A stretch of 36,366 nucleotides of DNA from Anaerolineales bacterium (GTDB taxonomy: Bacteria > Chloroflexota > Anaerolineae > Anaerolineales > DRMV01), in assembly GCA_027019065.1 (NCBI GenBank), contig JALUXH010000219.1, forward strand, positions 1 through 36,366, written 5' to 3'. Below the pieces are notes generated by a model that did not search any database, had not been told where the DNA came from, and saw nothing but the letters and a program-made list of their open reading frames with translations. Positions 17,200-34,349 of the stretch are shown piece after piece. The position numbers and the translations under genes are program-made. Within the stretch, counting starts at the first letter, position 1, and the number at the start of each line of letters is the position of its first letter.

Positions 17200-17635
17200 G
17201 CCTCCCATTTTACAACAAAATCGGTAATTCACGTGACGCAGCGGTGATTGACGGCAACTTTCACCCTATGAAACCGTTGAACCTTTGGTTTTTTGGCCCT
17301 CACCACTCCCCCTTCGCGGCGGCTCAGCCCCCTTTTCTTTCCCAACGGGAGAGGAAGCAGAAAAACCTCCACCGATTTCGCAGATTCGCACAGATTGGGC
17401 GAAAGGCGCCGTTCAGCCTTTGGCGGCGCGCTGCGGCCCGTCGTAGGGCGGCCCTACGCGGCAGCCAAGGGGCTTTTGGCATCATTCCGGGGCAAATCGG
17501 CCGCGGCTGCCGCACCCCGCTACTTGGGATTAGGCTCTCCGGCAGTGCTCAGTCACCCGGCTTGATCTCACCCCAGGCGGGGCAGATGGCGCCTTCTGGG
17601 ATGACCAAAATCTTGTTTGAGAACGCGCCGGGCAG

Positions 17636-20201: not shown

Positions 20202-20248
20202 AGGCAAAACCGGGGGGAAGGATGGCCGGGCGTGTGATAGGATTATAC

Positions 20249-20497
20249 GTAACTGCTCAGCTTTGGCAGGGAGAAACCACAGATTACGCAGAAAAATATC
20301 CACCGATTTCACAGATTAGCACCGATTGGAAACACAGAAGACACAGAAGAACCACAGAAAACACAGAAATTTACTTTGCGTCTTTGCTTCCTTTGCGTCC
20401 TTTGCGCTATCTTGGCGCCCTTGGCGACCTAAAATCTGCATTCATCCATGATTATCCGCGTCGTCTGCGGGCTGTTTTCCAAAGGCTGAACAGTTAC
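20249..20497 (+). mobile_element. MITE-like element copy 1 (249 bp), flanked by 8-bp TSD GATTATAC
   Basis: TIRs GTAACTGCTCAGCTTTGG / CCAAAGGCTGAACAGTTAC; direct repeats GATTATAC at 20241-20248 and 20498-20505. Confidence 0.85.
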
Positions 20498-20545
20498 GAT
20501 TATACAGCATTTCCCCCGCCGCGTGCGGGGACGGAGGTGCGGCGA

Positions 20546-21734: not shown

Positions 21735-21783
21735 TTCCCCGTGCTTCTTTTGCCCCCTGTTCCGCTTCAACCCGACTTCTCCC

Positions 21784-22010
21784 GTATCTATTCAGCCTTG
21801 GTAAAGAGAAACCACAGATTCCGCAGATTTCACAGATTTGCACCGATTGGAAACACAGAAGACACAGAAGAACCACAGAAATTTACTTTGCGTCTTTGCG
21901 CCCTTTGCGCTATCTTGGCGCCATCGTGGCGAGCTTGGCGACCTAAATCCGCCTCCATCGGTGATTAGCCCCATCATCCGCGGGCGATATCTCCAAGGCT
22001 GAACAGTGAC
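21784..22010 (+). mobile_element. MITE-like element copy 2 (227 bp), flanked by 8-bp TSD CTTCTCCC
   Basis: TIRs GTATCTATTCAGCCTTGG / CCAAGGCTGAACAGTGAC; CTTCTCCC at 21776-21783 and 22011-22018. Confidence 0.85.
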
Positions 22011-22037
22011 CTTCTCCCTTCCTCTTGGAGGTTGACA

Positions 22038-30307: not shown

Positions 30308-31072
30308 ATGTCTCGCTTTGTTGACCTTTCAGCCCCCATTGCCCCCAGCCCCGAGGGCACGCCGCCTTTCCTGAAAACGGAAATTGAATATCACGACCAC
30401 CAAGCAGGGGCCGCGCAGGCGCAGGCTATCCTCAAGGTGCCGCCCGAACTTTTCCGCCACGGCGAGGGCTGGGCCACCGAAACCATCACCCGCCTCGGCA
30501 CCCACGACAGCACCCACATTGACGCCCCTTACCATTACAACAGCACCATCCAGGGCCAACCTGCCCAAACCATAGACCAACTGCCGCTGGAATGGTTTTT
30601 CAGCGACGGCGTGGTGCTGAACATGACCCACAAGGCCAAAGGCGACCCCGTCACCGTGGAAGACATTCAGCAGGAACTCGCCCGCATCGGCTACGCCCTC
30701 AAACCGCTGGATATCGTGCTGGTGCACACCGGGCAAGACAGGTTTTACCACGCCCCCGATTACCTCTTCCGCGGCCCGGGCGTTACAGCCGAAGCCACCG
30801 TGTGGCTGTATGACCAGGGCGTGCGCGTGATGGGCATTGATGCCTGGGGGTGGGATGAGCCGCTGGATCTCCAGGCGAAAAAAGCACTGCAGGCCGGGCA
30901 GCCGGGCGTGTTCTGGGCGGCCCATCAGGTGGATTTGCCCTACGCCCAAATAGAGCGGCTGGTCAACCTTGACCAACTGCCGCCGCTGGGCTTCAAAGTG
31001 GCCTGCTTTCCGCTGAAAATTCAAGGCGGCAGTGCGGGGCCGGCACGCGTGGTCGCCATTCTGGACACGTAA
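30308..31072 (+). CDS. Cyclase family protein (kynurenine formamidase-like)
   Basis: LGTHDSTHIDAPYHYN (HxGTHxDxPxH-type), SAPIAP, GDPVTVEDIQQEL, VDLPYAQIERLVNLDQLPPLGFKVACFPLKI. Confidence 0.9.
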   Translation: MSRFVDLSAPIAPSPEGTPPFLKTEIEYHDHQAGAAQAQAILKVPPELFRHGEGWATETITRLGTHDSTHIDAPYHYNSTIQGQPAQTIDQLPLEWFFSDGVVLNMTHKAKGDPVTVEDIQQELARIGYALKPLDIVLVHTGQDRFYHAPDYLFRGPGVTAEATVWLYDQGVRVMGIDAWGWDEPLDLQAKKALQAGQPGVFWAAHQVDLPYAQIERLVNLDQLPPLGFKVACFPLKIQGGSAGPARVVAILDT

Positions 31073-31109
31073 CCGTTCGGCCCCGGCAAGGAAAAACCAC
31101 AGAGATTTC

Positions 31110-31374
31110 GTAACTGTTCAGACTTGGAGACATCGCCCGCGGATGATGTGGCTCATCACCGATGGAGGCAGATTTAGGTCGCCAAGGTCGCCACAATGGC
31201 GCCAAGATAGCGCAAAGGGCGCAAAGGAAGCAAAGACGCAAAGTAAATTTCTGTGTTTTCTGTGGTTCTTCTGTGTCTTCTGTGTTTCCAATCGGTGCAA
31301 ATCTGTGAAATCGGTGGATATTTTTCTGCGAAATCTGCGGAATCTGTGGTTTCCCTTTACCAAGGCTGAATAGC
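31110..31374 (-). mobile_element. MITE-like element copy 3 (265 bp, inverted), flanked by 8-bp TSD GAGATTTC
   Basis: TIRs GTAACTGTTCAGACTTGG / CCAAGGCTGAATAGC; GAGATTTC at 31102-31109 and 31375-31382; body is near-identical reverse complement of copy 2. Confidence 0.85.
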
Positions 31375-31487
31375 GAGATTTCACAAATGCACACAGATTT
31401 TCTCTTTGCGCTCTTTGCTCCCTCTGCACGCCCCCTTCCCGGCGGCTTTGGCGTTTGGGGTGAAGGGCGGGAGGCCGGCCCTGTAAC

Positions 31488-33971: not shown

Positions 33972-34057
33972 GCCGCGCAGTCGCCATTCCGCCTGCCCGG
34001 AAGAGGGGCGCCGAGGCGCAAGAGGAGCACAGAGACGCAGAGGAATTTCAAAACACG

Positions 34058-34161
34058 CGAAGCATCACGCCAAGAGCGCAAAGGGAGCAAAGACGCAAAG
34101 TCAATTTCTGGGTTTCCCTGGGGTTCTTCTGTGGCTTCCGGGTTTCCAATCGGCGCTCATC
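34058..34161 (-). repeat. Truncated relic of the same CACAGA/TTTGCG repeat family
   Basis: ACGCCAAGAGCGCAAAGGGAGCAAAGACGCAAAGTCAATTTCTGGGTTTCCCTGGGGTTCTTCTGTGGCTTCCGGGTTTCCAATCGG aligns with interior of copy 3. Confidence 0.65.
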
Positions 34162-34349
34162 GTAACGGTTCAGCCTTGGAAAAACAGGCCGCGGATGGCG
34201 CGGAATTTAGGTTGCCAAGATCGCCAAGCAACGGAAGTAAGTGTGGCGCTTTTCCGCGTTTTTCACCCAATCTGTGCCGATCTGTGAAATCTGTGGATGT
34301 TTTTTTCTGCGCAATCTGCGGTTTCTTTCTGCCGAGGCTGAACAGCTAC
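34162..34349 (-). mobile_element. MITE-like element copy 4 (188 bp, diverged/internally deleted)
   Basis: TIRs GTAACGGTTCAGCCTTGG / CCGAGGCTGAACAGCTAC; interior GGAATTTAGGTTGCCAAGATCGCC and AATCTGTGCCGATCTGTGAAATCTGTGGAT; no clear TSD. Confidence 0.7.

What the first reader, a model, noticed from the sequence alone, without database searches (positions are those of the whole stretch)
31081..31450. Copy 3 is nested inside an older relic of a related repeat
Removing 31110-31374 and one GAGATTTC rejoins GGAAAAACCACAGAGATTTC|ACAAATGCACACAGATTTTCTCTTTGCGCTCTTTGCTCCCTCTGCAC. This again has the family's word order: AACCACAGA, CACAGATT, CTTTGCGC. A younger element has inserted into a decayed one, giving a relative age order and hinting at preference for its own kind or for the same intergenic niches.
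Basis: partly seen in the sequence, partly recalled or inferred. Interest (0 to 1): 0.65.

Follow-up and report, generated by a model that had tools for sequence, protein, structure and literature searches.

The report
MITE nested inside an older MITE
A short non-coding transposon in an Anaerolineales-type bacterial genome has jumped into the decayed remains of an older copy of its own family, and a second kind of short transposon in the same genome lands in this family most of the time, apparently because the family carries its preferred target sequence.

Summary
Confirmed. Copy 3 (31110-31374) is flanked by a perfect 8-bp duplication (GAGATTTC) and sits inside an older element of the same family. 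The rejoined flanks align across the junction with an uninterrupted copy on contig C199 (score 138; best of 500 shuffles 50), which carries the single pre-insertion site ACCACAGAGATTTCACAAAT.

The family is a MITE with GTAACTGTTCAGCC ends and 8-bp duplications (64 such elements found), best explained as mobilised by an IS66/ISBst12-type transposase. No IS66 gene was found in this genome.

Self-nesting is real (8 of 65 sites strict, 0 of 1300 shuffles), but a preference for its own kind is not established: the family already fills about 3-9% of intergenic DNA. A second MITE ("MITE-B", 195 bp) does show preference: about 16 of 22 probably independent insertions lie in this family, and the nucleotide where copy 3 landed was hit repeatedly, by MITE-B in both orientations. 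Nested bacterial MITEs are known; the strong host preference is the new part.

The parts
31069..31109 (+). Left part of the older relic (MITE-A): left terminal inverted repeat GTAACCGTTCGGCC (31069-31082), then CCGGCAAGGAAAAACCACAGAGATTTC. The TAA at 31070-31072 is the stop codon of the upstream cyclase gene.
   Evidence: cyclase homologues in relatives end VVAILE* or VVAILED*, here VVAILDT* with the TAA taken from the repeat
31102..31109 (+). Target site, left copy of the 8-bp duplication GAGATTTC
   Evidence: single copy in the uninterrupted homologue C199
31110..31374 (-). Copy 3, the younger MITE-A element (265 bp), opposite in orientation to the relic. Left end GTAACTGTTCAGACTTGG; right end CCAAGGCTGAATAGC, 3 nt shorter than the family consensus end.
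31375..31382 (+). Target site, right copy of GAGATTTC
31383..31485 (+). Right part of the older relic: ACAAATGCACACAGATTTTCTCTTTGCGCTCTTTGCTCCCTCTGC..., then CCTTCCCGGCGGCTTTGGCGTTTGGGGTG; truncated, no right terminal repeat
20249..20497 (+). Copy 1, intact MITE-A; 8-bp duplication GATTATAC at 20241-20248 and 20498-20505
21784..22010 (+). Copy 2, MITE-A; 8-bp duplication CTTCTCCC at 21776-21783 and 22011-22018
33980..34349 (-). Fourth locus: element 34162-34349 (GTAACGGTTCAGCC ... GGCTGAACAGCTAC) joined on its left to a MITE-A fragment cut off at 34161; no clean duplication (CGCTCATC/CTGCAATC), so a nested insertion that lost one side, or a recombinant

Best explanation
Copy 3 is a non-autonomous transposon (MITE) with IS66-type ends that transposed into an older, already inserted copy of the same MITE family between a cyclase gene and an mtaB-like gene, duplicating the 8-bp target GAGATTTC. 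The likely mechanism is a transposase of the IS66 family, ISBst12 group, supplied in trans, which recognises the GTAACTGTTCAG ends and cuts the target with an 8-nt stagger. Shown: the ends, the duplication, the empty-site homologue, the nesting and many sibling copies. Inferred: the transposase, since none was found in this genome, and the cause of the nesting. The family's interior (repeats of CACAGATT, CACAGAAA, CTTTGCG) makes lower-GC islands full of GAAA/TTTC words in a 65% GC genome, so old copies act as landing sites: weakly for the family itself, strongly for the second MITE-B.
For: Perfect 8-bp duplication. Junction-spanning match to an uninterrupted copy, z = 24 against shuffles. Relic has its own left terminal repeat. 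64 sibling elements with 8-bp duplications (at most 1 mismatch), against 6 of 1740 in offset controls. 317 terminal-repeat sites against 40 in the reversed-pattern control. Nested sites 8 of 65 strict, 11 of 65 lax, 0 of 1300 shuffles. IS66 loci of the same class: 9 of 30 carry an inverted pair within 2 mismatches of GTAACTGTTCAG, against 0 of 30 for two control words; four have perfect 8-bp duplications. Published ISDge4 (IS66 family, ISBst12 group) has ends GTGACTACTCAGCA and GTAACTGCTCAGCA and an 8-bp repeat (PMC12898284).
Against: No IS66 transposase in this genome and only one, probably a foreign contig, in 18 genomes of the family, so the driver is not seen together with the MITE; the genome is an incomplete draft. 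Copy 3's right end lacks 3 nt of the consensus end. The relic has no right end, so its own duplication cannot be checked. No shared empty site in relatives, because the cyclase-mtaB neighbourhood is not conserved in the genus.
Confidence: 0.9

Rival explanations
1. The flanking words are not a relic but chance or simple low-complexity repeats (CACAGATT, CTTTGCG) that happen to flank copy 3.
For: The words are short and recur all through this genome.
Against: The rejoined core aligns as one ordered block, terminal repeat included, to several separate loci far beyond shuffles, and matches the homologue exactly over ACCACAGAGATTTCACAAAT across the junction.
Confidence: 0.02
2. The nested pair arose by recombination or gene conversion between copies, or was copied in as a ready-made composite, rather than by an insertion at this place.
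For: Composite A-in-A and B-in-A units do occur in several copies in this genome (the CGGAAAAC junction on C50, C83, C104, C123; L278/L286 and L263/L274).
Against: No second copy of the copy 3 + relic combination was found: the copy 3 search gives only partial relatives, and the relic search returns its two halves at this locus only. The duplication is exactly 8 bp and perfect at the element ends.
Confidence: 0.07
3. The ends belong to another transposase family with 8-bp duplications (for example IS1595, IS256 or ISAs1 type), not IS66.
For: No IS66 gene in this genome or clearly in its family.
Against: IS66 elements of the same class and published ISDge4 have near-identical ends and the same duplication length. 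Ends of the other families recalled from memory do not begin GTAAC.
Confidence: 0.1
4. Self-nesting reflects active targeting of its own kind by the MITE-A transposase.
For: 8-11 of 65 insertions nested; several MITE-A insertions share the nucleotide NNGATTTC^ACA.
Against: Occupancy of intergenic DNA by the family is 2.6-8.8%, so the excess is at most modest. Target letters of 65 insertions carry almost no consensus (at most 0.11 bit per position). Copies were partly found by family similarity.
Confidence: 0.25

Closest known systems
IS66 family, ISBst12 group (ISDge4 of Deinococcus geothermalis; IS66 elements in other genomes of the class, e.g. locus L106)
   Same: Ends GTAACTG(C/T)TCAG and 8-bp target duplications
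   Different: MITE-A is about 90-280 bp, non-coding, and no IS66 gene was found in its genome
Bacterial MITEs in general, e.g. BrickBuilt of Porphyromonas gingivalis (PMC4596501)
   Same: Short, intergenic, terminal inverted repeats, internal repeated words; BrickBuilt_18 contains another MITE, a precedent for nesting in bacteria
   Different: BrickBuilt has IS5-type ends and irregular duplications; MITE-A has IS66-type ends and regular 8-bp duplications
Insertion sequences that target intergenic repeats (IS1397 into REP palindromes; from memory, not tested here)
   Same: A mobile element that lands mostly in another repeat family, as MITE-B does in MITE-A
   Different: MITE-B is itself non-coding, uses several positions in its host and goes in both orientations

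Membership tests
MITE (non-autonomous, IS-derived) | Short, non-coding | tested here: met
   Sampled elements mostly 140-280 bp; the two-ended loci whose letters were read show only short repeated words and no transposase-like frame
MITE (non-autonomous, IS-derived) | Terminal inverted repeats | tested here: met
   GTAACTGTTCAGCC at both ends; 317 sites against 40 control; paired ends
MITE (non-autonomous, IS-derived) | Target-site duplication of constant length | tested here: met
   8 bp in 64 elements; offset control 6 of 1740
MITE (non-autonomous, IS-derived) | High copy number in intergenic DNA | tested here: met
   131 ends at one mismatch or less; 48 of 60 empty sites outside called genes
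IS66 / ISBst12 group | Ends beginning GTAA with IS66-like sequence | tested here: met
   Same 12-nt end as IS66 elements of the class and nearly that of ISDge4
IS66 / ISBst12 group | 8-bp duplication | tested here: met
IS66 / ISBst12 group | DDE_Tnp_IS66 transposase encoded or present in the genome | tested here: not met
   No PF03050 match in this genome, so the element is filed as a MITE with IS66-type ends, not as an IS66 element
IS66 / ISBst12 group | Mobilised by an IS66 transposase in trans | not testable with these tools
   Needs a transposition assay

The most novel reading that the evidence does not exclude
MITE-A copies, relics included, serve as a landing platform. A second MITE (MITE-B, 195 bp, ends GTAACTGCCTACGC / GTAATTACCTACCC) lives mainly inside MITE-A because its target motif (roughly CA^GAAAW or the reverse) is the repeated word of MITE-A, and the nucleotide NNGATTTC^ACAGAT, where copy 3 landed, is a hot spot used by several families in both orientations.
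Probability: 0.65. Interest if true: 0.6.

Novelty: new member of a known kind. Interest (0 to 1): 0.42.

Why it matters
The nesting gives a relative age order for copies in this genome and shows that relics stay usable as targets. The host preference of MITE-B turns the general question of why bacterial MITEs cluster in intergenic islands into a testable one: whether earlier repeats seed later insertions by carrying the target motif. The relic also supplies the stop codon of a neighbouring gene, a small example of IS66-type GTAA ends terminating a reading frame.

Tried and rejected
Dating by an orthologous empty site: rejected, because the mtaB-like gene has other neighbours in its relatives and the cyclase lies elsewhere. 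IS66 in the same genome or family as the driver: none in this genome; one in a relative whose ends and flanking genes look foreign. Rfam on the locus: one chance-level match only (RAGATH-15, 13.5 bits against a cut-off of 199.5). Target consensus for MITE-A: none. Literature on the interior words or on MITEs in Anaerolineae: nothing relevant among the papers listed. Two lax nested calls (L174, L187) were dropped because they matched only long paired loci that probably contain host DNA; L147 and L163 look nested by eye but miss the strict criterion. Laying out the whole genome was not possible, so counts come from searches and fetched stretches.

Full report
OBSERVATION. The stretch reads as the finding says. 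GAGATTTC occurs at 31102-31109 and 31375-31382, and between them lies copy 3 (31110-31374), a relative of copies at 20249-20497 and 21784-22010 (95% over 152 nt and 93% over 117 nt, both inverted). Those two copies have their own perfect 8-bp duplications, GATTATAC and CTTCTCCC. The element family, called MITE-A here, ends in GTAACTGTTCAGCC.

THE RELIC. Joining the flanks (one GAGATTTC kept) gives a sequence whose best match in the genome outside the locus is C199:8066-8157, 83% identity, E 2.4e-20, spanning the junction; C235, C190, C63 and C1 also span it. In a direct alignment the relic core scores 138 against C199, while 500 dinucleotide shuffles average 28.5 with a maximum of 50; the left part alone scores 58 and the right part alone 80, so both contribute in the same order. 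C199 reads ACCACAGAGATTTCACAAAT without interruption: this is the empty site. The relic begins with a terminal repeat of its own at 31069 (GTAACCGTTCGGCCCCGGCAAGG) and continues to about 31485. Its right terminal repeat is gone, while the homologue on C209 still ends GGGCAGGCGGAATAGTTAC. The relic's terminal repeat provides the stop codon (GTAACC) of the upstream cyclase (PF04199), whose relatives end VVAILE* or VVAILED*. Copy 3 lies in the opposite orientation to the relic.

AGE ORDER. The inserted element must be younger than its host. Divergence agrees: copy 3 has relatives at 93-97% over long pieces, the relic only 83% over 84 nt, and it is truncated. Copy 3 itself is not brand new, since its right end lacks three letters.

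THE FAMILY. A search with the terminal repeat (up to 2 mismatches) gives 317 sites against 40 for the reversed pattern in 2.48 Mb. In fetched stretches 64 elements have paired ends and an 8-bp duplication with at most one mismatch; shifting the comparison gives 6 of 1740. Within the genus the ends are abundant in G000, G004 and G005 and rare in G001-G003. The same exact end occurs in MAGs labelled Anaerolineales, and also in a Myxococcales MAG with a different interior. The contig coordinates of JALVOR01 (Anaerolineales) coincide with those of G004, a genome of the window's genus, so the window is probably from Anaerolineales (inference).

MECHANISM. Ends beginning GTAAC with 8-bp duplications point to the IS66 family. 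Of 30 IS66 loci from the class, 9 carry an inverted pair within two mismatches of GTAACTGTTCAG and none carries either control word; four have perfect 8-bp duplications. The ISBst12-group element ISDge4 has ends GTGACTACTCAGCA and GTAACTGCTCAGCA and the repeat CCTCGATG (PMC12898284). The window's genome has no PF03050 match, so the MITE is either stranded or served by a transposase that was lost or not assembled. The IS66 step is inferred.

IS SELF-NESTING MORE THAN CHANCE? Against shuffled sequence, yes: 11 of 65 rejoined sites match other family members across the junction, against 0 of 1300 shuffles. With a stricter library it is 8 of 65. Against random insertion into intergenic DNA, not clearly: the family fills 2.6% of intergenic positions in random contigs and 8.8% with the window included, so the probability of 8 or more ranges from about 0.001 to 0.2. 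Gene calls were made with a simple hexamer model, and five contigs without called genes were left out of the baseline. Insertions favour lower-GC surroundings (0.54 against 0.60 for intergenic DNA), which with intergenic tolerance may be enough. No target consensus was found for MITE-A.

A SECOND MITE THAT DOES PREFER THIS FAMILY. Searching for insertions at NNGATTTC^ACA, the nucleotide where copy 3 landed, showed other elements there, including a different MITE, MITE-B (195 bp, ends GTAACTGCCTACGC / GTAATTACCTACCC, 8-bp duplications), in both orientations (for example L253 and L144). A genome search with one MITE-B copy, blind to context, listed about 40 copies of 150 nt or more, mostly full length. 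Of 36 examined, 27 have a duplication with at most one mismatch, and 21 of these are inside MITE-A. After merging similar contexts, 18 of 24. Counting by hand the host positions and opposite orientations that cannot share an insertion, about 16 of 22 independent events; the chance at 8.8% occupancy is 6e-13. MITE-B sites carry a motif: 7 of 24 duplications start GAAA or end TTTC, against 2.6% of 8-mers inside MITE-A (P = 2e-6), and in a leave-one-out test true sites rank at a mean percentile of 0.90 among random MITE-A positions. So MITE-A is probably favoured because it is rich in this motif. Limits: the query copy was itself nested, only the best 40 of 188 candidates were scored, the position count and the GAAA/TTTC class were chosen after seeing the data, and composites that moved as units may remain in the counts.

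KNOWN OR NEW. Nested MITEs in bacteria are known: in P. gingivalis a 236-type MITE lies within BrickBuilt_18 (PMC4596501). The finding as given is therefore a new member of a known kind. The new part is the strength of MITE-B's preference for MITE-A, and the shared hot spot.

VERDICT.

Noticed in passing
L257-L293; e.g. L253 507-701 (minus) in host MITE-A: MITE-B, a 195-bp element with GTAACTGCCTACGC / GTAATTACCTACCC ends and 8-bp duplications, lies inside MITE-A in about three quarters of the copies examined.
   Followed up: yes
window 31110; L016, L082, L142, L143, L247, L248, L250; MITE-B in L033, L072, L153, L164, L178, L253: One nucleotide of MITE-A, NNGATTTC^ACAGAT, is an insertion hot spot for several MITE families, in both orientations. 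Several of the listed cases were seen from one junction only.
   Followed up: partly
L037, L058, L063, L144: A third short element (GTAATTACCTACGTGGTGGCAAAACGCCTCTG..., MITE-C) also sits in MITE-A copies.
   Followed up: no
window 31070-31072: The stop codon of the cyclase gene lies in the relic's terminal repeat; GTAA ends can terminate reading frames they land in.
   Followed up: partly
L078 1301-1620 (C235:5007-5318): A relic-type MITE-A with three tandem internal units of about 100 bp, an internal expansion.
   Followed up: no
G005 upstream of the mtaB-like gene (L219): A MITE-A-type right end (GAGGCTGAACAGTTAC) lies just before the mtaB-like start codon in another species of the genus, apparently an independent use of the same spot.
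   Followed up: no
window 17344-17490: A further family-like stretch in the spacer 17233-17635, without clear ends.
   Followed up: no
L120, L127, L128, L131 (Myxococcales MAG UBA4248): Elements with the same 18-nt end but an unrelated interior and GTTAC/GTAACTATTCAG partner ends; another MITE family with the same type of ends in a distant phylum.
   Followed up: no
L200, L202-L205 (C90, C117, C131, C145, C159): Short contigs on which the gene model trained on this genome called no genes; possibly foreign contigs in the assembly.
   Followed up: no
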